Of a stretch of 64,000 bases of DNA, positions 46,773 to 59,066 are shown in pieces. Below the pieces are notes generated by a model. That model was not told the origin of the DNA. It did not search any database and saw nothing but the letters and a program-made list of their open reading frames with translations. This stretch comes from Marinobacter iranensis. Lineage in GTDB: Bacteria > Pseudomonadota > Gammaproteobacteria > Pseudomonadales > Oleiphilaceae. Position 1 is the first letter of the stretch, and each line of letters opens with the position of its first letter. The stretch covers positions 274,707 to 338,706 of the forward strand of contig NZ_JANCMW010000003.1 of the NCBI RefSeq assembly GCF_029207565.1, given 5' to 3'. The position numbers and the translations under genes are program-made.

Positions 46773-47204
46773 ATGACCAAGCCGGTAATATTTGACTACG
46801 CGTTTAAGCAAAGACCTGGAGGGTTCGACAGAGTCGTATATAACTACGATGATGACATAAATAAGGTCGATGGAATAAGTCTTGTTAAGCAAAGCCGAGC
46901 GGCTTCACTGTACTTGACCAAGACAAACACTGAAAGGGAGTCGGATGACAACCCAACTCATACTGCCTTGGGAATGATAACCAAGACTGATGTTGTCCGA
47001 GAATCGGATGACGCATCCTATGAGGAAATGCTTGGAGCCCTGACCAAAACAAAAGTAGAAAGAGAATCAGACGACGATCATTTTGAAACGTCGATAAGTC
47101 TTGGCATCCAAACAACCGCTACTCTAAAATATAATAATGCTAACACAATCCCTCTTGTGATGCTCCTTACCAAGACTGAAAGTAATCGAGAATCAGATGA
47201 TTAA
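46773..47204 (+). CDS. Putative multi-core graspetide (omega-ester/amide RiPP) precursor
   Basis: A 143-residue peptide with a leader of about 45 residues (FDYAFKQRPGGFDRVVYNYD) and four copies of the 11-residue motif T-K-T-x3-R-E-S-D-D at residues 49-59, 70-80, 91-101 and 133-143; the protein ends exactly on the last D-D. Thr/Lys donors followed by Glu/Asp acceptors in a repeated core are the layout of graspetides, where an ATP-grasp ligase forms ester or amide macrocycles between side chains. The ligase gene overlaps the end of this gene by eight bases. AGGAGG-like GGAGG precedes the ATG at 46773. The DNA is AT-rich compared with the liu genes. Confidence 0.8.
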   Translation: MTKPVIFDYAFKQRPGGFDRVVYNYDDDINKVDGISLVKQSRAASLYLTKTNTERESDDNPTHTALGMITKTDVVRESDDASYEEMLGALTKTKVERESDDDHFETSISLGIQTTATLKYNNANTIPLVMLLTKTESNRESDD

Positions 47205-48183
47205 AAATAATGTCTTAGTAATCACTAACAAAGAGGACGTAACAGTTGACTTTGTCATTGAAGCCCTCAAGGTAAATAAAATAAATTACTACAGGTTTAA
47301 TACTGAAGATATTGGATCAAATATTAGCATATCTTTTGATTCGGCCGGGTATGCTCTATTCGACCACAAAAAATCGAAAATTATCAAAATAAATGAATTT
47401 GGATCAATTTACTTCAGACGACCTAAACTCCCACCTCCAATGCCCGGCTTAACTATAGGCGAGCAGCAATTTTATTTAAACGAAATATCAACCTACCTAG
47501 AGGGAATTTATCGAAACTTATCGTCAAATTTTTGGTTAAATTCGGTTTTTGACATTCGAATGATTGAGAATAAACCATATCAAATTGAACTAGCAAGGAG
47601 TATTGGCTTTTCAGTCCCTAGTTTCTGCGTATCCAACAACGTCAACATATGCAACGATTTTTTCAGAAAACATGATTTCTGTATATTTAAACCCCTGAAG
47701 GTAGGCTTGATAGAAGAGCCTGAAGGCGTAGGTAAAGTTCTATACACGACAAAAGTCGACTCCAACTTCATTGAAAAAATAAAAACAAATGGAGCAATGC
47801 CTATTTATCTTCAACAGCAGGTTATAAAGAAATGTGACATTAGAGTCACGTTGGTTGGAAACAAAATATTTGGGGCGAAAATATTGTCTCAAAACTCAGA
47901 CATAAGCCGAGTCGATTGGAGAAGATCAGATTCAATGCTTGCACATGAAAAGGTCGATATACCTTCGAAATTGAAGGATAAGTGCCTAAGACTTTGCAAG
48001 CTCTTCAACCTCAATTTTGCCGCAATAGACTTCGTGCTAGATAATTCAGACCGTTTCTGGTTTCTGGAAATCAATCCAAATGGACAGTGGGCATGGATTG
48101 AAAGTTTACTCGGCTACCCAATAAGTAATGAAATTGCAGAGTTGCTAGCATCGGGAGGGAAGGATGATCGGACAAATCATTGA
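47197..48183 (+). CDS. ATP-grasp RiPP ligase (MvdC/MvdD-like graspetide maturase)
   Basis: A 328-residue protein. The N-terminal pre-ATP-grasp part begins VLVITNKEDVTVDFVIEAL and includes FGSIYFRRP, the region that binds the leader in MvdD-type enzymes. The ATP-grasp part carries FCIFKPLKVG, QQQVIKKCDIRVTLVGNKIF (D-x-R-V-x-V) and the C-terminal magnesium motif FLEINPNGQW with NFAAIDFVLD before it. It should phosphorylate acceptor Asp/Glu side chains in the precursor and close rings with Thr/Lys. Its start overlaps the precursor gene and its end overlaps the membrane protein gene, indicating a three-gene operon. Confidence 0.85.
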   Translation: MIKNNVLVITNKEDVTVDFVIEALKVNKINYYRFNTEDIGSNISISFDSAGYALFDHKKSKIIKINEFGSIYFRRPKLPPPMPGLTIGEQQFYLNEISTYLEGIYRNLSSNFWLNSVFDIRMIENKPYQIELARSIGFSVPSFCVSNNVNICNDFFRKHDFCIFKPLKVGLIEEPEGVGKVLYTTKVDSNFIEKIKTNGAMPIYLQQQVIKKCDIRVTLVGNKIFGAKILSQNSDISRVDWRRSDSMLAHEKVDIPSKLKDKCLRLCKLFNLNFAAIDFVLDNSDRFWFLEINPNGQWAWIESLLGYPISNEIAELLASGGKDDRTNH

Positions 48184-48874
48184 ATCTATATGGCCTCGTT
48201 TGGAAGGCTCCCCTGTTGCATACGATGATTTTCTTGATAATGATACCGAAATCCCAGAAGAAAATCTTGAAAAATCGATCGAGTTTGCGATTTTAATGTA
48301 TGAAAAGCAAAAAGAGCGTGTTTCGACCATTGAATCGAAATCTAGTATTTACCTAGGTTTTTTCGGAACTGTAATAGCAATTCTATTTTTCGCACTGAAA
48401 GACTTATTTTTTAAGGTAGAGAGTGGTATCGCTTATGACGTTGCGATAATGTTTGGCGGGATCTTAATAATATATATATTACAAGTTATGCACTATGCGA
48501 TTAAGGCGTTGGAGCGGAGAGGATACCATAGCATCGATGAATCCGAATTTTTACATGGCGACAAGCGTAGAATCGCCGTTGACTTGATCAATAACGTGAA
48601 GAAAAACTATGACGTGATAAATGCAAAAGTAGATTGCATGACGATGGCACATGAGTTTACCAAGCGCATATTATGGATGATACTAATCGCAGCAGTAGCA
48701 CTTGTCATTTTACCACTCACAAAATATAGCTCTGTCACTTTAGTCACTGATATTAAAGCATTATCGCTAGAGTTTGATCTGAGACTTTCTGATTATATTC
48801 TCACATTAGTTGTTGCATGGCTAACAGTAAGTCATTACCAGATTTTAAAGATAAAGAATAAAATCAAGAAATGA
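48164..48874 (+). CDS. Membrane protein of the graspetide cluster
   Basis: A 236-residue protein with four probable membrane segments: about residues 63-82 (SIYLGFFGTVIAILFFALKD), 90-110 (DVAIMFGGILIIYILQVM), 169-187 (ILWMILIAAVALVILPLT) and 212-228. An N-terminal cytoplasmic region is rich in Asp/Glu. It overlaps the ATP-grasp gene by 20 bases. I do not recognise a family; export of, or self-protection against, the peptide is a guess from context. Confidence 0.65.
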   Translation: MIGQIIESIWPRLEGSPVAYDDFLDNDTEIPEENLEKSIEFAILMYEKQKERVSTIESKSSIYLGFFGTVIAILFFALKDLFFKVESGIAYDVAIMFGGILIIYILQVMHYAIKALERRGYHSIDESEFLHGDKRRIAVDLINNVKKNYDVINAKVDCMTMAHEFTKRILWMILIAAVALVILPLTKYSSVTLVTDIKALSLEFDLRLSDYILTLVVAWLTVSHYQILKIKNKIKK

Positions 48875-49307: not shown

Positions 49308-50627
49308 TCATGCCGTAGCTTGTTCCAACGCAGCTTCAATTTTCGAAATCCAGCTGCAGTCAATTCCTCTACTTTCCCGCGCTTCTCTTATCATCCTTAG
49401 ATTATTCGCCGTAGTCTCTGGCTCCCATTTTTCTCTCATTGATGCTATAGCCATCCCCAGAGCATTTTGAGCTCTTACCTCATCTTGAGCCAAAACGTGT
49501 ATTTCTAGCTCTGTCGCATGATCCCAGTAGTCAGGAGCCTTACTAGCCAAGCGTCTCTTTACCGAATAAGCAACCACTGGAATAAGTTCCTCTTTTCTTG
49601 TGTCAGGAGGATCTGAACATTCCATCAGTGTTACAGCGTTGATGCCAGGGTACGCATCTCTCCAATCCGACTCAAAGCCCTGGAGGTATGCATCAATAGA
49701 CTTGCGTAAAAAGGCTGCCGCTACTGAACTCTGATCCGCCTTCGTCTTAGACCACTGATCCTTATATACTCGCCCTAAAATACCATTGGTCTCACTGCTA
49801 GGCCCATGAATTTCGATAATCTCGGTTAGCACCGACTCCGCCTCTCTGTGGCGCCCTAACCTATTCAGTGCGACCCCTAACTGCTCTTGAACAAGGATTG
49901 TTTGCTTTAGCGGCACGGCCATTTGATTGACTAAATCAATCATAGCTTGCCAGTCTTTTACTGCCCTATAAGATAGAAATATATCAATAACAATCGCTGG
50001 ATCAGCATCGACTATATCAATCTGATTTTTAACGACATCAACTGCTTCACTACCTTGTTCTCGAGCACGTCTCAAACGTTCCTTCATGGACTTTGAATAC
50101 TCAACCATACCTCGGAAAGCGTCTGTCTTCAGCCTTTGGAGGTCAGGGCGCGGCACATCTGTCAGCAGTTGGTACAGTGGACTATCGTCCGCAGGATCTC
50201 GGCAAGCCTTAAGTCTTTCTGCTAGTAATTGGCTGACATCATTAGCATTTTTCGGAAACCCATAGTCATCGACATCGTAAAGTATGGCTCTTAATGGAGA
50301 TACATCAAATGGAAGTCGCATACCGCTTCCGGCGATCGGCACGGTGCTATAGGGTCTCACACCGTGCCTTATTCCTAGCTCGTAAAAAACATTAGCATTG
50401 GCTGTTGTGAGGTCTGCAACCGCATAATCACACATCATTAGGCGTTCAAACATAGGCTTATGTATAATTCCGCCAATGATTTCCTCATCAGCTCTTATAG
50501 GCTCCAGATTTGCAGCCTCGATTGCGGGAGCAATTATCTCTTTGTAAACCGAATCAAATTCGACAACACGCCCATTTTCATCGGATTTCCTTCCGAACGG
50601 CATCAACACAAAGCAATAGGGCCTCAT
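49308..50627 (-). CDS. TIR/deoxyribosyltransferase-like N-terminus fused to TPR/TRAFs-binding-type region
   Basis: A 439-residue cytoplasmic protein. Residues 1-120 start CFVLMPFGRK and contain ADLTTANANVFYELGIRHG (D72, N79, E83), the pattern of TIR/NDT-like nucleotide hydrolase folds found in conflict systems. Residues about 210-439 are helical and TPR-like (QEQLGVALNRLGRHREAESVL in part), with NGILGRVYKDQW, resembling the DUF4071/TRAFs-binding family. It is the last gene of the minus-strand operon, 122 bases after the small TIR-like gene, with its own ribosome site AGAGGA. It could be an effector or a sensor; the sequence alone does not decide. Confidence 0.7.
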   Translation of the reverse strand: MRPYCFVLMPFGRKSDENGRVVEFDSVYKEIIAPAIEAANLEPIRADEEIIGGIIHKPMFERLMMCDYAVADLTTANANVFYELGIRHGVRPYSTVPIAGSGMRLPFDVSPLRAILYDVDDYGFPKNANDVSQLLAERLKACRDPADDSPLYQLLTDVPRPDLQRLKTDAFRGMVEYSKSMKERLRRAREQGSEAVDVVKNQIDIVDADPAIVIDIFLSYRAVKDWQAMIDLVNQMAVPLKQTILVQEQLGVALNRLGRHREAESVLTEIIEIHGPSSETNGILGRVYKDQWSKTKADQSSVAAAFLRKSIDAYLQGFESDWRDAYPGINAVTLMECSDPPDTRKEELIPVVAYSVKRRLASKAPDYWDHATELEIHVLAQDEVRAQNALGMAIASMREKWEPETTANNLRMIREARESRGIDCSWISKIEAALEQATA

Positions 50628-50749
50628 TGTTTCTTTCCTCTACTTATGTGTTAGAAGCCCTTGAAACTTTTTTGCTCCAGAGCTATAGACGAATAATATT
50701 GGTCTTTGAGAAAGAGACGCACTTTTGCCAACGTTCCTTTGAACTCCTA

Positions 50750-51217
50750 TCACTCCAATTCGTCAGCCAGTTTGGCCCACGCCACAGTCTTGATATTTCC
50801 TGTAAGCCAATCAGGGCTCTTTCCACCAAGATGTTCTCCTGAATGAACTGCAATGACCCGCTTTCCGAGTTCAAGGCTTTTCTGGACTTCCCAAGCGACC
50901 CACTGACTCTGTGCAGTGTTTTCGGAGATGTAAACGACCGTTGTGGAAGAGCGTGCAATTCGCTCCGCTATCTTGCGTCTAATATAGTCTGCTTGTTCAC
51001 TATCATATGGCTTGCGTACTGAATGATCGCTGAACTCAATATCGCTATTCTCGTTCTTGGCGTGAGCTCGAAGCAAGTTTACGTCGTCGATGTCTTCGGC
51101 TGCAAAACTGATGAATACGTTCCTTTTGCCACCCTGGAGCGCGGCTTTTGCCTTCTCCTCCAGCGACCGAATGTCCCCAAGTCTATTCCATCCTCCACCG
51201 CTACTGCTGCCACCCAT
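50750..51217 (-). CDS. Small TIR-like protein (ThsB/MTH538-like)
   Basis: A 155-residue protein. The TIR-like core runs from residue 33 (NVFISFAAEDID) through SSTTVVYISENTAQSQWVAW to GKRVIAVHSGE, as in the Thoeris ThsB/DUF1863 family, where such proteins make NAD-derived signals. The candidate catalytic Glu is E110 in WVAWEVQKS. The N-terminus is a flexible MGGSSSGGGW tail, unusual and possibly functional given the adjacent QueC-like gene. GGAGG lies 10 bases before the ATG and the QueC stop is five bases upstream. Confidence 0.8.
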   Translation of the reverse strand: MGGSSSGGGWNRLGDIRSLEEKAKAALQGGKRNVFISFAAEDIDDVNLLRAHAKNENSDIEFSDHSVRKPYDSEQADYIRRKIAERIARSSTTVVYISENTAQSQWVAWEVQKSLELGKRVIAVHSGEHLGGKSPDWLTGNIKTVAWAKLADELE

Positions 51218-51222
51218 TTTAT

Positions 51223-51813
51223 TTAGGCCTCCTCAAACTTAAACTCTTTACAAGCAATACACCGACCGCAGGCTTGTTCCCCCCCCATGTGACATGAGTA
51301 GGTATTCCGTATTCCTTTTTGTTGAGCAAGCATGACGACGTCTTGTTTGTGGAAAGCCGATAAAGGAGCAAGTACCTTGATGCGTCTTCCCATGCAAAGC
51401 ATGATCATCTGTTCAGCTTCGCCGAGGAAGGCCGCCGTTTGGTCAGGAAACAAGCTAGTGTCTTCGTGAAGAAGTCCAATCGACACAGCATCTGCTCCAA
51501 CTTGGTATGCATGAGCCGCAGCTATCAAAAGAAATAGCATGTTACGCCCGGGCGTGAATGCATCGTCGACCACGTTGAGATTAACGTCAGTAAGTCCCGA
51601 ACGGATTAGCGCACCAAAGCCAGAAAGACCCGCAACCATCGGCTCAGGCAAATTCAATGCAGCCATGGCGCTACGACAGGCCGCGAGCTCTTGGTTACAG
51701 GACCGCTGCCCATAGTCGACAAACAGGGGATGCTGGTGTAAACCCTCTTCTTGGGCAAGCTTGGCGGCAAGGGTCGAATCGAGCCCACCCGAAACAAGTG
51801 TGACGATGCTCAT
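51223..51813 (-). CDS. QueC-like 7-cyano-7-deazaguanine synthase homologue (Cap9-type)
   Basis: A 196-residue PP-loop protein with SGGLDS at residues 8-13, VDYGQRS, TPGRN at 87-91, and a C-terminal zinc site C174, C182, C185, C188 (ACGRCIAC), all as in QueC. It is somewhat shorter than housekeeping QueC (about 220-230). No queD, queE or folE is present, so it is not a preQ0 operon. The partners (TGT-like and OGG-like genes) are those of type IV CBASS, in which the QueC homologue is called Cap9. It overlaps the OGG-like gene by four bases. Confidence 0.88.
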   Translation of the reverse strand: MSIVTLVSGGLDSTLAAKLAQEEGLHQHPLFVDYGQRSCNQELAACRSAMAALNLPEPMVAGLSGFGALIRSGLTDVNLNVVDDAFTPGRNMLFLLIAAAHAYQVGADAVSIGLLHEDTSLFPDQTAAFLGEAEQMIMLCMGRRIKVLAPLSAFHKQDVVMLAQQKGIRNTYSCHMGGEQACGRCIACKEFKFEEA

Positions 51814-52517
51814 ATCTTTACGGGCTCCATTGTTCGGCTAGCTACACGCATAACAATCCATATTGCCCAGTCCAGTAGCCCCACGGGGCAATCTAAGGTG
51901 TCAGAGTGCTCACGCAGCGCAGCTTCAGACCGGTTGTACTGAGCGATAGTGGCTATAGAAAGCTTGGTTCCATTATAGATGCCAAGTTCTTTCATGTAAT
52001 TCAGCACGTGCCGATCCAGTATAGCGAGATCGTAACTCACGCCCGCATTGCGCAAGAACATACTTGCCTGTTTAGGACCCAGCCCCGGGGCATTTGCAAC
52101 GAACCAAGCCCTGGCGTCTGTGGCGTCACGAAAACTCCCGACAAGAGCACGGAGCGAGCATGCCTCCGTAGTCACTGCCACGCGGGTGGAAGCGAGATGC
52201 CGAGCGCGTGCAGCGGGAAAACGGTATGAACGGAGTCGACCCGCTACTGATAAAGGGGTACTCAGAACTTCGACGAGACGAGGTGTTAAAAACTCTGGAT
52301 CGTGACAATCGCCCAAGAGAAGACCTTCTTCATCAATCGCGTCGGCCGCAGCAGCTGCTAGAGGGTACGGCACTTGGCTGCTCAAGACGCAAGACGACAA
52401 CTCCCACCACAAACGCCGCTCGTCCGGCGGCTCGCAGGGTTGCGAGACGCGAGCCAAAACATCTGGGCAAATAGCTGCAACAGCACTCATTAACCGCCCG
52501 GAATCGTAAGAAATCAC
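51810..52517 (-). CDS. OGG-type HhH-GPD glycosylase/lyase homologue (Cap11-type)
   Basis: A 235-residue protein with the helix-hairpin-helix motif PGLGPKQASMFLRNAG and the downstream AILDRHVL. The catalytic Lys and Asp of OGG-type bifunctional glycosylases correspond to K149 and D168, both present. Housekeeping OGG proteins act on 8-oxoguanine in DNA; in type IV CBASS the homologue (Cap11) is an ancillary protein of unknown substrate. It overlaps the TIR-TGT gene upstream and the QueC gene downstream by four bases each, so these three proteins are translated as a block. Confidence 0.82.
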   Translation of the reverse strand: MISYDSGRLMSAVAAICPDVLARVSQPCEPPDERRLWWELSSCVLSSQVPYPLAAAAADAIDEEGLLLGDCHDPEFLTPRLVEVLSTPLSVAGRLRSYRFPAARARHLASTRVAVTTEACSLRALVGSFRDATDARAWFVANAPGLGPKQASMFLRNAGVSYDLAILDRHVLNYMKELGIYNGTKLSIATIAQYNRSEAALREHSDTLDCPVGLLDWAIWIVMRVASRTMEPVKI

Positions 52518-53917
52518 TTGAAGAGCCTCGGAATCTGTTTTTTAAGATAACTCACCATCTCCCAGTCAGTCAGTCCTACCACAAACGCCTCCATGTTATC
52601 GTCCATTACAGCTTCTCTAAGACTTTGCGCAAAATTGGTAAAGTAATCGAGATTGTGAAACGCAACCTTGCCACCATAATCAATATCCGGATCTTTCAGC
52701 GCCTGAGTTGCTGTAGCTGAATCGCTTACCTCAGTCTGATATTTGAAGAAGTCAAAGTGCTGAAAGTGATGAAGTCGATTCTTATCACGATCAACTACCA
52801 TACGGCACCACTCGAGGCCATCAAAAGTATCTGCACCCGCTGCCGTCAATATTGCAACACTCCAAGGGTTTCCGGTACCAAGAATGTGCAATGGCTGATA
52901 GAACGGTAGTTTATTTAGCTCTTTCCTGATCGATTGGACCATTAGTGCGCGAGCAATAAGACCAGGACCAAGCTCTCGTTCTGGAATGGCTATTAGCTTT
53001 GGCTCAAGCCGGTCTGCAACTTCCCGAACGATTTTTGGAATGTGGTCAAGCTTATACCCGCCTGATTTTAGACTTGGAGCATGAATGATCGGGAGTACAG
53101 AAGCATCGGTGAAAGATCTGTCACGCTCCACTGCCATAACAATCTCCTCAATGGCACGATCTGGATCGTGTTTCGGACCCATTACGTCGAAGCAAAATGC
53201 CCAGTCATGCGGGGTTTGACCAAGCGCCTCTTCCAAATCAGGCTTCTTCCATCTCCGTGTGCCCAAGCGGGATGCTTCGTAATTGCCGGAGTCAATCAGA
53301 ACGAATCCGCCGTTTTTTCGATATTCTGTTAGCTCCTCGATTAAGGCTTGCGGTTTGCGGCGAGTGACCAAGTCGTAAGCCGAGACTAGAATAGTAGGTG
53401 CCTCAAAGACTCGTAGCGCTTGTAGGGCCTCAACCGGCACTAGTTGCGTCTCATGTGACGAAACTGACAAAAAAAGTGTGGGTAGCTGCACCTTGCCGTC
53501 GGCAATCGCTGGGGGTCTCTGAGGCTTGGCTCTAGGCGGTACTGCAAGATCTAAACGCCGTTGCAGTTGCAAAAGTCCGGGGTGGTCGACCTCACCATTC
53601 CACCCACGCAGATCGGAGCAACTATAAGAACCGAAGGAATAGGGCGGATCGCTATCATCAATCCGGGCTGGCAAAATTTCAATGCCATGCTTTTCGCCTA
53701 GCCTTAGCTCATCCGTGACAGTACTCTTGCTTCGAGCAGAGACAGAGAAAAGCGCTACAATGCAGCTCGCCTTCGGAATCTCTGCTTCAATCACCTTATC
53801 AAAGCGCCCTATGATCTTGTCATCCCACCAAGCCTCCCAACGCTCCGATAGAACCTTGTAAAGCTGTTCCGCAACCGTTTGGTCTTCCCTTGCATACACG
53901 ATATATATATCTGCCAT
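52514..53917 (-). CDS. TIR domain fused to tRNA-guanine-transglycosylase-like domain (Cap10-type)
   Basis: A 467-residue protein. Residues 1-125 are a canonical TIR domain: DIYIVYAREDQTVAEQLY, WEAWWDDK, and the candidate NADase Glu E70 in STVTDELRLG. Residues about 145-460 match TGT folds. DSGNYE (D209) stands where TGT has DSGGFQ, D244 in FCFD where TGT has its substrate-binding Asp, and D366 in ADTFDGLEW where the nucleophile Asp lies; HILGTGNPWSV matches the TGT phosphate-binding loop. The CxCxxC zinc site of tRNA TGTs is not seen, so it is unlikely to be the housekeeping enzyme. The fusion joins an NAD-cleaving module to a base-exchange module. Confidence 0.82.
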   Translation of the reverse strand: MADIYIVYAREDQTVAEQLYKVLSERWEAWWDDKIIGRFDKVIEAEIPKASCIVALFSVSARSKSTVTDELRLGEKHGIEILPARIDDSDPPYSFGSYSCSDLRGWNGEVDHPGLLQLQRRLDLAVPPRAKPQRPPAIADGKVQLPTLFLSVSSHETQLVPVEALQALRVFEAPTILVSAYDLVTRRKPQALIEELTEYRKNGGFVLIDSGNYEASRLGTRRWKKPDLEEALGQTPHDWAFCFDVMGPKHDPDRAIEEIVMAVERDRSFTDASVLPIIHAPSLKSGGYKLDHIPKIVREVADRLEPKLIAIPERELGPGLIARALMVQSIRKELNKLPFYQPLHILGTGNPWSVAILTAAGADTFDGLEWCRMVVDRDKNRLHHFQHFDFFKYQTEVSDSATATQALKDPDIDYGGKVAFHNLDYFTNFAQSLREAVMDDNMEAFVVGLTDWEMVSYLKKQIPRLFK

Positions 53918-53940
53918 GAGATACTGAGCACCGGCTGAGT

Positions 53941-55107
53941 TTATTTACTTTCTATGCCAGGACCGTTCACCGTAGCCCAAGCAGCAAAATAAAGTGCTGA
54001 GACAAAATCATCAGTGACCACAATGTCGGCTTCTATGCTCGATAGACACGCTGGATACGAACATTCTTCCCGCAAAACGACAACTGAGGCTCCCGAAGCT
54101 TTTGCAGCTTGAGCCAGTTCGGCCACACCCTCACGAAGCCCATCCGCTAAAATAAGCACCGAAGCAGCAGGTTCGCGAGATCGGGCACCCAACACTTGGC
54201 AAGTGACATCGACTCCGAGCTCTCGCAGTAGGAACCGTGCCTCTTCCATGGTATAGCGCTGCCCGATGGTGCCAACCGAACCTTCAAGCGCAACCACACC
54301 AAGATCAGAAGATTTCAGCGGCACCAGATCACGAAGTTCGTCATCTTCGAGTGGTAGCTGGCCAGAGCCACAGTATGCTGCGACCGAACGCGATGCCTCA
54401 TTAGCAGCTTTCTTTGCCGGCAATCTTTTCTCTGCCCAGCAATGTGCAAAAATCGCACTGAACACATCGCCAGTACCAATTTTGAACACACGCGACGAAC
54501 GGTAAGCAGGAATGTGTGCAGCCTCATAGCCACGCTCAAAGACCATTGCGCCTCGAACCCCTCTCTTCGCAACAACGACTGAAGCATCTTGGTTTTCCAT
54601 GAGATACAAAGCCGCCAAATTTAGGTCTTCAATTCCAGTAGCTGACCTAAGCTCAAGTTCGTTGAGCACAATTGCCAGCTCTCTCGCTACAGATCCGTTC
54701 TTATGAAATGGAACCGGGGTTCGCCAAGTCTGCGGATCGTATACAGCGCGGTGCGCATCTACGACGGCATCTCCTTCAAGAAACCCGAAACGTAGAACTG
54801 CTTCTCCACTAACTTGAAGTGGTGGCTGAGGTGTAATCTCATTGGGGTCAGGCTGGATATTTGGTCGAGAAAGAGGGTGGAAATACGCAAAAGCAATATC
54901 AGTCGGACGCGGATTAAGACGTACATTGATTCCCAGCATCTCTAGTGACGCAGCACCTTCACTGACAACACTTTGTGAGTATGTGTGGAGAGTGCTGCTC
55001 TTCGAAAGAGCGGAAACTGCTGCCGCTGCACGGCCTCCGGAGCCAAATACTGCATCCCAAGGAGGAAGACAGCATAGCTCGCGGTAGAGCCCCCCGGCTA
55101 TATGCAT
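53941..55107 (-). CDS. PfkB-family kinase with C-terminal nucleoside deoxyribosyltransferase-like region
   Basis: A 388-residue protein, the first gene of the operon. Residues 1-250 follow the PfkB/ribokinase pattern: an N-terminal IAGGLYRE start, FGSGGRAAAAVSAL, then the anion-hole and catalytic motif KIGTGDVFSAIFAHCW with D214 as the likely base. Residues about 270-388 (VVALEGSVGTIGQRYTMEEA then ELGVDV) resemble nucleoside 2-deoxyribosyltransferase-like folds; this second call is weaker. It might phosphorylate and handle a nucleoside or ribose product of the TIR/TGT proteins. It is separated from the TIR-TGT gene by 23 bases. Confidence 0.72.
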   Translation of the reverse strand: MHIAGGLYRELCCLPPWDAVFGSGGRAAAAVSALSKSSTLHTYSQSVVSEGAASLEMLGINVRLNPRPTDIAFAYFHPLSRPNIQPDPNEITPQPPLQVSGEAVLRFGFLEGDAVVDAHRAVYDPQTWRTPVPFHKNGSVARELAIVLNELELRSATGIEDLNLAALYLMENQDASVVVAKRGVRGAMVFERGYEAAHIPAYRSSRVFKIGTGDVFSAIFAHCWAEKRLPAKKAANEASRSVAAYCGSGQLPLEDDELRDLVPLKSSDLGVVALEGSVGTIGQRYTMEEARFLLRELGVDVTCQVLGARSREPAASVLILADGLREGVAELAQAAKASGASVVVLREECSYPACLSSIEADIVVTDDFVSALYFAAWATVNGPGIESK

Positions 55108-55732: not shown

Positions 55733-56350
55733 CTACCAACCGTCCAGTTTGATCCCGTGCTCTTTGAGATACTCGCCCTCTTCTTCCAAATATTCGTCCA
55801 CCCATTGAGAGTAGTCCGACTTTTCGTTGTTAAACGGTCTGGCCTTATAGCGCCCAACCTCAATCGCATTTTCTCCACGGTTCATGATCCAGACAACCAC
55901 TGTTCCACCTGGAGCAAGCCCCAGAACGAGCGTATCTCGGGGACGTTCCGCTATCTCACCATAACTTTCAAAGGGTGCGACTTCTTTCATCTTTTCCACG
56001 ATCTCGTCGGCATTTTCCAGCTTGATCACGGCCTCATAGGATTGCTGCTCTGCAAAAGAAAACCAACGGATGAGAAATAACTCGGGGGTAGCCTTCCATT
56101 GCGCCCCGGAAAATGGGGGATGTTTCCAGCAACATGACACGATCCCGAAAGGGCGGCGCCATCCAATATCCTCGGACAAAGATTCGATAAAGAACTTATC
56201 AACCCATACGTCATAATGCTCCGGGGCCACCACGCCAATGCTTCGATATGTCGAGTTTGGCCCTGGCATCGACCCGTCCGATTCTGTTTGCTCAGAACAG
56301 CCTAAAAGAACCAATACACAAAAGCTGAACAAGAAGTGCTTAATACTCAT
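55733..56350 (-). CDS. DUF2931-like lipoprotein, probable T6SS lipase immunity (copy 2)
   Basis: A 205-residue lipoprotein with lipobox LVLLGC, a close paralogue of the gene at 56549-57166 (shared VAPEHYDVWVDKFFIESLSE, in part, RRPFGIVSCCW, IRWFSFAEQQSYE, NRGENAIEVGRY). DUF2931 lipoproteins are commonly encoded next to T6SS lipase effectors and act in the periplasm as immunity proteins. ATG 56350 gives the lipoprotein signal start with GGGA upstream; the longer reading frame above it runs through the effector-tail remnant. Confidence 0.82.
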   Translation of the reverse strand: MSIKHFLFSFCVLVLLGCSEQTESDGSMPGPNSTYRSIGVVAPEHYDVWVDKFFIESLSEDIGWRRPFGIVSCCWKHPPFSGAQWKATPELFLIRWFSFAEQQSYEAVIKLENADEIVEKMKEVAPFESYGEIAERPRDTLVLGLAPGGTVVVWIMNRGENAIEVGRYKARPFNNEKSDYSQWVDEYLEEEGEYLKEHGIKLDGW

Positions 56351-56369
56351 GATATTTCCCATCAATCCA

Positions 56370-56520
56370 CTATCCCTTGTTTGGGTGGATGGGCCAGCGG
56401 CCATCTTTGGCGAAGCTGAAGGGGTATAGCAGGCCCATTTCCAGGTAATGGTCGGAACGGTCCAGCCATTCACGGAAGAGCTCGAGCAAGTTACCGGACT
56501 CGCCCCTGATTATGCGAAGA
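56370..56520 (-). pseudogene. Remnant of the 3' end of a second PAAR-DUF2235 effector gene
   Basis: The minus strand encodes a fragment RGESGNLLELFREW joined directly to SDHYLEMGLLYPFSFAKDGR and ending IHPNKG. Both pieces match the intact effector at 57183-59066 (about residues 413-426 and 599-626), with the intervening 170 or so residues deleted. It lies just upstream of immunity copy 2, exactly as the intact effector lies upstream of copy 1, showing that an effector-immunity pair was duplicated and the effector lost. Confidence 0.8.
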
Positions 56521-56548
56521 CCAACTCCCAACCCTGGAACCATGCGAG

Positions 56549-57166
56549 CTACCAACCTTCCAATGGGACGCCATGTTCTCGGATATACTCGCCGCTATCG
56601 CGCATATAGCGCTCAGTAATTTCACGGTAGTGCTCTGGGTGTGTTTCTACCTTTCTTGACTCATATCGCCCAACCTCAATCGCATTCTCCCCGCGGTTCA
56701 TGATCCAGACCACTACCTTTCCGCCGGGCGCCAGCCCTAGCACCAGGTTATAACGGGGGCGTTCAACTATTTCGCCATAGCGTTCGAAAGACACTGGCTC
56801 TTTCATCTTCTCCACAATTTCGTCCGGATTTTCCAGTTTGATCACGGACTCATAGGATTGTTGCTCTGCGAACGAAAACCAGCGGATAACAAACAGCTCT
56901 GGAGTGGTTTGCCATTCTGCACTGGACAGCGGCGCACTTTTCCAGCAACAAGACACGATGCCAAAAGGGCGGCGCCACCCAATATCCTCGGACAGGGATT
57001 CGATGAAAAACTTGTCAACCCAGACATCGTAATGCTTCGGAGCCACAACACCGATACTCCTATAAGCCGTGTTTGGCCCATACCTCGGTCCCTCAACGTC
57101 TTTTTGCTCCGAGCACCCCAAAAGAACCAGAACACACAAGCTGAGCACGTAGAGCTTAGTCCTCAT
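56549..57166 (-). CDS. DUF2931-like lipoprotein, probable immunity to the adjacent lipase effector (copy 1)
   Basis: A 205-residue lipoprotein (lipobox LVLLGC) with the same domain as copy 2. ATG 57166 has GGAG six bases upstream; it begins 16 bases after the effector stop. Outer-face or periplasmic immunity fits the site of action of T6SS phospholipases. Sequence differences from copy 2 are concentrated in the middle and last 40 residues, as expected if each recognises a different effector variant. Confidence 0.84.
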   Translation of the reverse strand: MRTKLYVLSLCVLVLLGCSEQKDVEGPRYGPNTAYRSIGVVAPKHYDVWVDKFFIESLSEDIGWRRPFGIVSCCWKSAPLSSAEWQTTPELFVIRWFSFAEQQSYESVIKLENPDEIVEKMKEPVSFERYGEIVERPRYNLVLGLAPGGKVVVWIMNRGENAIEVGRYESRKVETHPEHYREITERYMRDSGEYIREHGVPLEGW

Positions 57167-57182
57167 GATATTCTCCATCGAC

Positions 57183-59066
57183 TCACTGTCCCTTGTTTGG
57201 GTGTATCGCACGACGACCATTTTTGGCTGGCCTGAAGGGGTATAGCAGCCCAATCTCCAGGTAATGGTCGGAATGGTGAATGTACCGTTGTTTTAGTAAG
57301 GCTTTGGACTCCGACGCTATCAGCAACTCTTTGCCATGCCAGACGTGCGCAGCGAGGTTTCTGGCTATGGGCATTAATTCCTGTGGGAGCACCAATTGAG
57401 GGTTGTCCGTTGGTATCGGCTCGAATGGTACGCCTACATCCACCGCCAACTTGTGCATCAGATATAAAGGAATGCGTGAATATTCCCCACGCACTTCACG
57501 ATTTAGCCAGAGATGCAACGCTACGTCACCGCCTGTCAGGCTTGGCTGGGTAGGTTTCATCGGCAGACGCTCCTGTTCAATATCAAGGGTGGCCAGCGGG
57601 TTGTGTTTGCCTATCCAGCCCTCGCTTTTTATCAAAGCCCGCTCATGGAGCATTCGGGAGAACTCCATACTGGATTCCGGATCACGACGAGCCTTTCCTG
57701 TAATCACTACGGGCGGGCGAACTTCGATATGCTCCTGAAACCGGTCCGGGTAGCCACCGCCAATATCGGAATGCGCTCCCGGCAATACCCATTCACTGAA
57801 ATTCTTGGGCAAGTTGCCGGACTCACCCCTTAGGCTGTTTAAGGAGAAATTGTGCCGGCGCTCATCCCGGGCCACGAACTGAACTGCTCTTTCAACCTGC
57901 TCCGGCTTTATATTGACATTGATACGACCGGTTCTCTCGTCGTGGGCGGAGAAATCCAGGTTACCCAAATCGGCAATACCCGCAACTGTATCGAACAGGC
58001 CGAGAAAGCGAACTGTGATTCTCTTCGGCCAGGGAACGCCTTCCCGTCTAAAGGCTTTGGCCAAAGCCCCTTCATAGCCGCCAGACAAAGACCCGGTCGT
58101 ATCATGAACCTCCCGGCTCACAAAATGACGGGCGGTTGCTGCTCCACGGCTGAAGCCGAATACATCGAGGACTAATTCATCGATCGATTCCTTGACGGAG
58201 CCGGCAATTTCAAACACCAACTTTTCGCACCCACTGTCGATCTTTTTTAGTGCGCCCTGCTCGCCAAGCCCGAGCCCCATACTCTTATCATCATCGGGTT
58301 CACCGGACTTTGTGCCAACCCCCGACACGTAGGTGGATAACCGGTATATCTGTTCGCCACCTTCACCTTGGGATCCAGTCCTTTGATACAAATTTTCAAG
58401 TTTGGAGACATTGGTTTCGGCATTGAGATAACTGCCCTCCATAAACTGCGACAGCTCATTACCGCACTCTTCTTCCGACATGGCTCCAGCAGCATTGGCC
58501 GTCAGGCATTCATCCATTTGTCGTTGGTAGGTCTGGGTGTTGTTGCGGTTGTTGCCGGTGCCATCAAAAAAGATGCCTGCTTCCACCCGGACTTTGGGGC
58601 GGTCCTCTTCTTCGGATGACTCATCCGGTGATTCGTCAGGCAGCCCTTCGTCGATCAACGCGCCTTTCTGCGCTGCCCGGCGCACAAATTCCAGAGGGTC
58701 TTTGTCCAGCAGTTCTTTTGCCGTTGGTGTGAGTTGGCCCTTGTCATCCAGGGCACCGGCGACCGCAAAATCGACGACTGGCGCGGCGGTGGTGGCAACG
58801 CCAAGAATCACCCTTGGATTACCACTAACAATTGAACCGCCATGGTTGGTGGGGCTTCCGAGATACGCCACGGGCATGCCATCGGCAAATGCCATTGGGT
58901 ATCCCTGGGTGATCATGGCACCACAGCCCGTGACATCGCCCACACGGGCAACGGGTTTGCCTTCAACAAGGATACTGGAGCCGTTTGGCAGGATGGGGGT
59001 AGAACCGTGCCCTTTGATCGGGCAAACATGCATGTCGCCTACGCAGGCGGTGATGAGCTTGCTCAT
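57183..59066 (-). CDS. T6SS effector: PAAR domain fused to DUF2235 lipase (Tle-like)
   Basis: A 627-residue protein. Residues 1-95 are a PAAR domain (HGSTPILPNGSSILVEGKPV in part, RVGDVTGCGAMITQG) that caps the VgrG spike. After an acidic linker (140-157) comes the DUF2235 alpha/beta hydrolase: FFDGTGNN at 167-174, the nucleophile elbow G304-F-S306-R-G308, and GAHSDIGGGY at 430-439. DUF2235 members include Tle1 phospholipases that attack membranes of rival cells. Two immunity-type lipoproteins follow. No vgrG or tss genes are in the window, so it rides on an apparatus encoded elsewhere. Confidence 0.9.
   Translation of the reverse strand: MSKLITACVGDMHVCPIKGHGSTPILPNGSSILVEGKPVARVGDVTGCGAMITQGYPMAFADGMPVAYLGSPTNHGGSIVSGNPRVILGVATTAAPVVDFAVAGALDDKGQLTPTAKELLDKDPLEFVRRAAQKGALIDEGLPDESPDESSEEEDRPKVRVEAGIFFDGTGNNRNNTQTYQRQMDECLTANAAGAMSEEECGNELSQFMEGSYLNAETNVSKLENLYQRTGSQGEGGEQIYRLSTYVSGVGTKSGEPDDDKSMGLGLGEQGALKKIDSGCEKLVFEIAGSVKESIDELVLDVFGFSRGAATARHFVSREVHDTTGSLSGGYEGALAKAFRREGVPWPKRITVRFLGLFDTVAGIADLGNLDFSAHDERTGRINVNIKPEQVERAVQFVARDERRHNFSLNSLRGESGNLPKNFSEWVLPGAHSDIGGGYPDRFQEHIEVRPPVVITGKARRDPESSMEFSRMLHERALIKSEGWIGKHNPLATLDIEQERLPMKPTQPSLTGGDVALHLWLNREVRGEYSRIPLYLMHKLAVDVGVPFEPIPTDNPQLVLPQELMPIARNLAAHVWHGKELLIASESKALLKQRYIHHSDHYLEIGLLYPFRPAKNGRRAIHPNKGQ

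What the first reader, a model, noticed from the sequence alone, without database searches (positions are those of the whole stretch)
49308..55107. CD-NTase-less operon joining the type IV CBASS trio (QueC/TGT/OGG) to TIR proteins and a PfkB kinase
Six minus-strand genes with four-base overlaps or short gaps encode PfkB-NDT?, TIR-TGT, OGG-type, QueC-type, ThsB-like TIR and TIR/NDT-TPR proteins. QueC, TGT and OGG homologues are the named ancillary set (Cap9, Cap10, Cap11) of type IV CBASS, where a CD-NTase supplies the signal. No CD-NTase or usual CBASS effector is present here; three proteins with TIR or TIR-like folds are present instead, as in Thoeris. I infer an antiphage system in which NAD-derived signalling replaces cyclic nucleotides and deazaguanine chemistry conditions it. 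Catalytic residues are present in TIR (E70), TGT (D209, D244, D366), OGG (K149, D168), QueC (SGGLDS, four Cys) and the kinase (D214). I know of no described system with this set.
Basis: partly seen in the sequence, partly recalled or inferred. Interest (0 to 1): 0.95.

Follow-up and report, generated by a model that had tools for sequence, protein, structure and literature searches.

The report
Glycine-tailed TIR deazaguanine immune operon
This gene cluster, whose four core genes recur in the same order in distantly related bacteria, pairs a QueC-type enzyme with a TIR immune protein whose tail begins Met-Gly-Gly; the enzyme is predicted to attach a modified guanine base to that tail, which would extend a protein-tagging step known from one type of CBASS defence to an unrelated signalling enzyme.

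Summary
The window carries a minus-strand run PfkB > TIR-TGT > OGG > QueC > TIR > TPR-S without a CD-NTase. The core TGT-OGG-QueC-TIR recurs in that order in 59 of 63 fetched loci from several phyla. No CD-NTase was found in them, while a true type IV CBASS locus was detected. MGGS is the N-terminus of the type IV CBASS CD-NTase that Cap9, a QueC relative, tags with deazaguanine (PMC13279940). I infer that the TIR replaces the CD-NTase as the tagged protein, that the Cap10-like TIR-TGT binds the tagged tail, and that an NAD-derived signal or NAD loss acts through ASK1-like TPR-S, SLATT or TIR effectors. Tag, signal and phage defence are untested. Against it: 8 of 50 system-bearing genomes lack QueD and a convincing QueE, and this QueC scores closer to canonical QueC than to Cap9. 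The papers I could search do not describe the system; the main preprint's body is not held.

The parts
53941..55107 (-). PfkB/ribokinase-like kinase (388 aa) with a C-terminal Rossmann-like domain of unsure family
52514..53917 (-). TIR-TGT fusion (467 aa); predicted Cap10-like reader of the modified tail with its own TIR domain
   Evidence: best solved match Cap10 9ntn (5.4e-7), then archaeosine TGT 1iq8; PADLOC type IV TGT; profile match to Cap10 P0242 over 269 columns
51810..52517 (-). OGG-type HhH glycosylase/lyase-like protein (235 aa)
   Evidence: Ogg-HhH; nearest solved relatives are N-glycosylase/DNA lyases such as 3fhg; K149 in 61 of 61, D168 in 60 of 61
51223..51813 (-). QueC-family enzyme (196 aa); predicted to modify the TIR N-terminus
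   Evidence: QueC; ATP, base-recognition and zinc residues conserved; own clade apart from Cap9 and canonical QueC
51228..51234 (-). GAGGAGG, Shine-Dalgarno-like, about 10 bases before the TIR ATG; supports the MGG start
   Evidence: sequence printed
51173..51217 (-). MGGSSSGGGWNRLGD tail of the TIR; Gly2 is the predicted acceptor
   Evidence: MGG in window plus 58 of 58 intact loci and frameshifted L004
50750..51217 (-). ThsB-like TIR protein (155 aa), predicted catalytic Glu E110
   Evidence: ThsB_TIR 1.3e-23; W106, W109 and E110 in 59 of 59; that this Glu is catalytic is recalled from other TIRs
49308..50627 (-). TPR-S protein (439 aa), predicted sensor/effector, TIR/NDT-like N-terminus

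Best explanation
This is a conserved gene cluster with the core (TIR-)TGT, OGG, QueC and MGG-tailed TIR, most likely an anti-phage system, in which the QueC-type enzyme is predicted to join a 7-deazaguanine base (from CDG, 7-carboxy-7-deazaguanine) to the N-terminal glycine of the TIR. Shown by the calls: fixed gene order without a CD-NTase, Met-Gly-Gly at the start of the TIR after QueC, and kept ATP, base-recognition and zinc residues in QueC. Inferred by analogy with type IV CBASS: Met1 is removed, QueC conjugates the base to Gly2, and the Cap10-like TGT domain binds the modified tail, docking the TIR onto TIR-TGT. Inferred without a direct analogue: docking brings two TIR domains together and licenses NAD+ cleavage once a phage trigger arrives, and the product or the NAD+ loss acts through the TPR-S protein here and through SLATT, CAP12-type TIR or other TPR-S fusions elsewhere. 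OGG and the kinase would supply, tune or remove the tag; their role is the least certain step.
For: Order TGT-OGG-QueC-TIR on one strand in 59 of 63 loci. QueC-adjacent TIR starts MGG in the window and 58 of 58 intact loci, while the rest of the tail varies in sequence and length; QueC stop to TIR start is -14 to +21 bases, median 1, in 58 loci. Controls: 0 of 32 other TIRs in these loci (near-copies included); 23 of 886 other ORFs have any MGG start within 40 codons. 116 of the 120 best TIR homologues start MGG as called. In a true type IV CBASS locus, L073, the CD-NTase next to Cap9 and Cap10 starts MGGSGGGFF. Published: Cap9 joins CDG to the CD-NTase N-terminal glycine, motif MGGS, and G2D blocks defence (PMC13279940); Cap10 binds that N-terminus (PMC11996544 abstract). 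QueC F122 (59 F, 1 Y of 60) and D124 (60 of 60) stand at Cap9's Y115/D117 base-recognition pair, which QatC has lost. Cap10 of L073 finds in 72,556 plasmid records only itself and 11 of the 13 TIR-TGT records. TIR E110 in 59 of 59. Own genome has QueE, QueD-family genes and a canonical QueC.
Against: Of 50 system-bearing genomes 42 have a QueD-family gene, 3 of these only by weak matches, no more than 232 of 299 in the phylum sample; in the 8 without it a QueE model gives nothing in 7 and a weak hit (1.5e-4) in one, and one of the 8, L011, is an isolate with an intact core. By score this QueC is nearer to canonical QueC (2pg3 5e-19, 3bl5 3e-14) than to Cap9 (9nto 2e-13), and it is not in the Cap9 clade. 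TIR-TGT keeps the transglycosylase Asp residues, so it may do more than bind. The TIR relatives are close kin, so part of the MGG conservation is shared descent. No modification, signal or defence was measured.
Confidence: 0.62

Rival explanations
1. The QueC, TGT, OGG and PfkB proteins handle free or nucleic-acid 7-deazaguanines, for instance sensing or excising deazaguanine bases of phage DNA or host tRNA, and this chemistry triggers the TIR proteins, which are not themselves modified.
For: OGG and TGT catalytic-type residues are kept; QueC scores nearest to canonical QueC; a PfkB-type kinase is directly upstream in 37 of 59 loci.
Against: It does not explain the MGG start of the TIR after QueC, the same tail on the type IV CBASS CD-NTase, or the Cap10-like TGT. 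The residue after the first zinc Cys is His in this family and Tyr in canonical QueC; by my reading of the numbering that Tyr is Y189, whose loss inactivates E. coli QueC (PMC13329287).
Confidence: 0.15
2. The cluster makes a diffusible 7-deazaguanine-containing nucleoside or NAD analogue: QueC and the kinase prepare the base or ribosyl part, TIR or TIR-TGT exchanges it with nicotinamide of NAD+, and the TPR-S protein senses the product.
For: TIR and TGT are both glycosyl-transfer folds and sit in one protein in 51 of 59 loci; the kinase fold is close to ribokinase and nucleoside kinases.
Against: TIR on the TGT is dispensable: L047, L056, L057, L058 and L060 have TGTs of 319-339 aa next to the MGG TIR. 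PfkB is absent in 22 of 59. Again the MGG tail is unexplained.
Confidence: 0.13
3. The cluster is not a defence system but a regulated metabolic or stress module.
For: No phage experiment exists here; the window neighbours are a graspetide-like cluster and a PAAR protein, not known defence genes.
Against: Sporadic (1 of 61 genus genomes, the own one), on 13 plasmid records, in a lower G+C stretch (49.7% against 59.3%), with swapped CBASS/Pycsar-type effectors near the core in other loci.
Confidence: 0.07

Closest known systems
Type IV CBASS (Cap9 QueC, Cap10 TGT, OGG, CD-NTase)
   Same: QueC-family enzyme, Cap10-like TGT and OGG beside a protein that starts MGG
   Different: The MGG protein is a TIR, not a CD-NTase; no CD-NTase in the loci; the QueC is a separate clade; TIR domain fused to the TGT in 51 of 59 loci
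qatABCD (QatC QueC-like, QatB with MGTS N-terminus)
   Same: QueC-family enzyme plus a partner with an N-terminal glycine motif (PMC13279940)
   Different: QatC-specific extensions and Thr/Thr pocket are absent here: 196 aa, F122/D124 kept; no QatA, QatB or QatD match
Thoeris (ThsB TIR, ThsA effector)
   Same: ThsB_TIR domain; NAD-derived signalling is likely
   Different: No ThsA match among the ten ORFs scanned; the TIR carries an MGG tail and QueC/TGT/OGG partners
QueC cluster 4 of PMC13329287 (QueC with PfkB-NDT)
   Same: QueC with a PfkB-type neighbour; His after the first zinc Cys
   Different: Spacing YGQ(x)5E and CH(x)6C as in Cap9, not YGQ(x)6E and CH(x)5C; TGT, OGG and TIR present; NDT domain of the kinase not confirmed

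Membership tests
Type IV CBASS | CD-NTase in the operon | tested here: not met
   21 CD-NTase queries against 2392 ORFs of 100 aa or more in 73 loci hit only L073; profile without L073's own protein still finds it at 1.4e-11; own genome without PF18144 match
Type IV CBASS | Cap9-clade QueC | tested here: not met
   30 sampled system QueCs form one clade (SH-aLRT 96) apart from 26 Cap9 rows (99); quick tree without bootstrap
Type IV CBASS | Cap10-type TGT | tested here: met
   as homologue: (L057 TGT 3e-24); most copies carry an extra TIR domain
Type IV CBASS | OGG-type protein | tested here: met
   Ogg-HhH by Pfam; no PADLOC match
Type IV CBASS | Partner with MGGS-type N-terminal glycine | tested here: met
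   on the TIR, not on a CD-NTase
Type IV CBASS | N-terminal deazaguanylation of the partner | not testable with these tools
   needs mass spectrometry
Thoeris | ThsB-type TIR | tested here: met
   ThsB_TIR, PADLOC ThsB 2.7e-15
Thoeris | ThsA effector | tested here: not met
   no ThsA match among the ten window ORFs scanned
qatABCD | QatA, QatB, QatC, QatD | tested here: not met
   only a weak QatC match (0.023) of the QueC; no others among ten ORFs
QueC cluster 4 (PfkB-NDT pair) | PfkB fused to NDT next to QueC with YGQ(x)6E and CH(x)5CxxCxGCxK | tested here: inconclusive
   kinase two genes away; NDT not found in 25 of 25, partial profile match; spacings differ
TPR-S / MAP3K TRAF-binding proteins | TPR-S plus MAP3K_TRAF_bd domains | tested here: met

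The most novel reading that the evidence does not exclude
The deazaguanine carried on the TIR tail is itself the ADP-ribose acceptor: the TIR cleaves NAD+ and the fused TGT, a transglycosylase with its three Asp residues kept, transfers ADP-ribose to the tethered base, making a new kind of base-ADP-ribose signal or switch that OGG and the kinase then release or process.
Probability: 0.1. Interest if true: 0.97.

Novelty: new variant of a known kind. Interest (0 to 1): 0.86.

Why it matters
N-terminal deazaguanylation is reported for the type IV CBASS CD-NTase and suspected for QatB (PMC13279940). If the TIR here is the acceptor, the same tag controls an unrelated immune enzyme, and QueC-family proteins would be general licensing enzymes for glycine-tailed immune proteins. 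That gives a sequence rule (QueC neighbour plus Met-Gly-Gly tail) with which to predict further substrates, and one co-expression and mass-spectrometry experiment can test it. It would also join deazaguanine metabolism, TIR/NAD signalling and an ASK1-like sensor in one bacterial system.

Tried and rejected
Rejected: a CD-NTase hidden near the core; the system as a Cap9-clade type IV CBASS; the gene set as a one-strain accident; the kinase C-terminus as a Pfam-recognisable NDT (a 94% partial profile match covers the end of the kinase part and the first part of the following domain).

Led nowhere: Rfam and tRNA scans of the window (0 hits); TIR-TGT in 50,697 phage records (none); viral contigs gave one confirmed locus, L064, out of 32 pattern matches and one partial Cap9-like stretch, L074 (not studied); a 172-residue Cap9 piece in 398 Pseudomonadota genomes at 1e-15 (0, no positive control, so it shows nothing); enrichment of QueD (none). 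The N-terminus of the TPR-S model and the C-terminus of the kinase model were not folded or searched apart, so their folds stay open.

Papers. Seen in parts: PMC13279940 (parts 1-3 of 6, and a term search); PMC13329287 (parts 1-2 of 5, section 8 and a term search). Abstract only: PMC11996544 (its body is not held). Passages: PMC9503650, PMC8195603, PMC10952713, PMC12948488. PMC7699616 only in a listing. Searches for an earlier description: TIR, QueC, TGT, OGG, CBASS, at least four, 0 papers; TIR+QueC+defense, 2 papers; deazaguanine+TIR domain, 6 papers, of which two were read in passages; deazaguanylation, 4 papers, 3 listed; two of tRNA-ribosyltransferase, TIR domain, anti-phage, 91 papers, 10 listed and none opened. 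None that I saw describes the set; papers asked for by DOI are not held. An earlier mention elsewhere cannot be excluded.

Rows dropped before counts: L085 and L088 gave no ORF under my QueC motif filter and are not in the tree; 29 loci plus the window and 26 Cap9 rows were sampled for it; L004 (frameshifted TIR) is not among the 58 intact loci; of 33 control TIRs one was the window's own TIR and was taken out; one search took 50 of the 54 loci first asked for (L044, L046, L055, L059 left out); L110 is a doubtful CD-NTase ORF and was, with L092, left out of the profile.
Full report
What is there. On the minus strand of the window lie a PfkB-type kinase (53941-55107), TIR-TGT (52514-53917), OGG (51810-52517), QueC (51223-51813), a ThsB-like TIR (50750-51217) and a TPR-S protein (49308-50627) (domains). 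OGG overlaps both neighbours by four bases; the TPR-S gene stands 122 bases further on. The run lies in a lower G+C stretch (49.7% against 59.3% for bases 1-45000), and the TIR is found in 1 of 61 genomes of the genus, the own one, so recent acquisition is likely.

Is it conserved? A profile of the TIR-TGT fetched 60 loci from one-per-species genomes and one from viral contigs; two plasmid loci were taken from the 13. In 59 of these 63 the order TGT, OGG, QueC, TIR is kept on one strand. The exceptions are L048 and L053 (cut by contig ends), L061 (a fragment) and L063 (divergent, without OGG, QueC and TIR). Record titles and tree labels place them in Pseudomonadota, Thermodesulfobacteriota, Nitrospirota, Bacillota, Acidobacteriota, Gemmatimonadota, KSB1, Paceibacterota and one 6.6-kb Micrarchaeota MAG contig, which may be a binning error. 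Of the 59, 51 have a TGT of fused length, 37 have PfkB directly upstream, 38 have a TPR-S hit over 200 bits and 30 have a second TIR. Five complete loci (L047, L056, L057, L058, L060) have a TGT without TIR domain but keep the TIR gene after QueC, so that TIR is the constant one. In 398 Pseudomonadota genomes the PADLOC type IV TGT model rang in 6: five, the own genome included, are TIR-TGTs by my profile; the sixth scores 30 bits.

No cyclase. Twenty ORFs from PF18144-hit loci (one, L110, doubtful) and the CD-NTase of L073 were run against 2392 ORFs in loci L001-L073. Only L073, a type IV CBASS locus on a Pseudanabaena plasmid, was hit. A profile built without that protein still finds it (1.4e-11), and 20 of the 21 are found by another, so the method can see CD-NTases. 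The own genome has no PF18144 match.

The key feature. The TIR that follows QueC begins Met-Gly-Gly in the window, in 58 of 58 intact loci and in frameshifted L004. Behind the two glycines the tail varies: MGGSSSGGGWNRLGD in the window, MGGGGGYSGRDLSQ in L055, MGGSRSNRSFSPKE in L060. My choice of start codon favoured an M-GG start where several were possible, but the same liberty gave 0 of 32 for other TIRs in these loci and 23 of 886 for other ORFs; 56 of the 58 starts are ATG, and a GAGGAGG stands about 10 bases before the window's ATG. Among the 120 best TIR homologues, 116 start MGG as called and two of the other four have MGG one or nine residues on. The CD-NTase of L073 starts MGGSGGGFFS. 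PMC13279940 (parts 1-3) says that Cap9 joins CDG to the N-terminal glycine of the CD-NTase, motif MGGS, that QatB has MGTS, and that G2D blocks defence in both. The preprint abstract says that Cap10 binds that modified N-terminus. Two unrelated proteins, CD-NTase and TIR, thus carry the same glycine tail beside a QueC and a Cap10-like TGT. This is the main ground for the mechanism proposed.

Can the QueC do it? It keeps SGGxDS, Y34 (58 Y, 2 F), Q36, E42, R90-N91, K156 and the four Cys in 60 of 60 rows, and F122/D124 where Cap9 has Y115/D117, the pair that recognises the base. E. coli QueC Y131F kept partial activity at that place. After the first zinc Cys it has His, where the 9 canonical rows have Tyr and the 26 Cap9 rows Glu. 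Spacings YGQ(x)5E and CH(x)6C match the Cap9 motifs given in PMC13329287; the His matches its cluster 4. By score it is nearer to canonical QueC (2pg3 5e-19) than to Cap9 (9nto 2e-13), though below the NCBIfam cut-off for QueC (122.6 against 150.3 bits). In a quick tree the 30 sampled system QueCs form one clade (96), apart from 26 Cap9 (99) and 9 canonical (96) rows: a third lineage, not a Cap9. The own genome has a canonical QueC beside a QueE and QueD-family genes, so CDG should be available there.

Against it. Among 50 system-bearing genomes 42 have a QueD-family gene, three of them (L031, L034, L035) by weak matches only, no more than 232 of 299 in the phylum sample. In the eight without it a QueE model found nothing in seven and one weak hit in the eighth. 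Six of the eight are MAGs, bins or uncultured assemblies and one (L004) has the frameshifted TIR, but L011 is an isolate with an intact core. Either such cells import the base, or the donor is not always CDG. Modification, signal and defence could not be tested here.

Verdict. The glycine tail turns it into a specific, testable mechanism. The locus is not a member of type IV CBASS, Thoeris or Qat by the tests made; it most likely works like type IV CBASS with a TIR in place of the cyclase.

Noticed in passing
46773-48874 +: A 143-aa peptide with four TKTxxxRESDD repeats, an ATP-grasp maturase of MvdD/GRASP type and a 236-aa protein with weak 2TM matches: a likely graspetide cluster with a multi-core precursor.
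   Followed up: partly
55733-59066 -: A 627-aa protein whose start looks like a PAAR protein (my reading, no family search) followed by two similar lipoprotein-like ORFs (56549-57253, 55733-56473): a possible secreted effector with immunity genes.
   Followed up: no
L071:4161-6785: Neotabrizicola plasmid with a 443-aa PfkB-like/NDT protein next to a QueC and a 220-aa protein: the pair that PMC13329287 calls cluster 4.
   Followed up: partly
L005, L009, L011, L018, L021, L025 and others: A second ThsB-like TIR starting MGLPRTFVGFSSTD recurs in these loci, several times near the TPR-S gene: a single glycine after Met, not MGG.
   Followed up: no
L045:6805-10777: The TIR-TGT of Pseudomonas gessardii is split into two ORFs about 2.4 kb apart, as if interrupted by an insertion.
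   Followed up: no
L085:1-4494: Bradyrhizobium plasmid with a DpdA/DpdB, QueE, QueD, QueC run, the DNA-deazaguanine type of locus.
   Followed up: no
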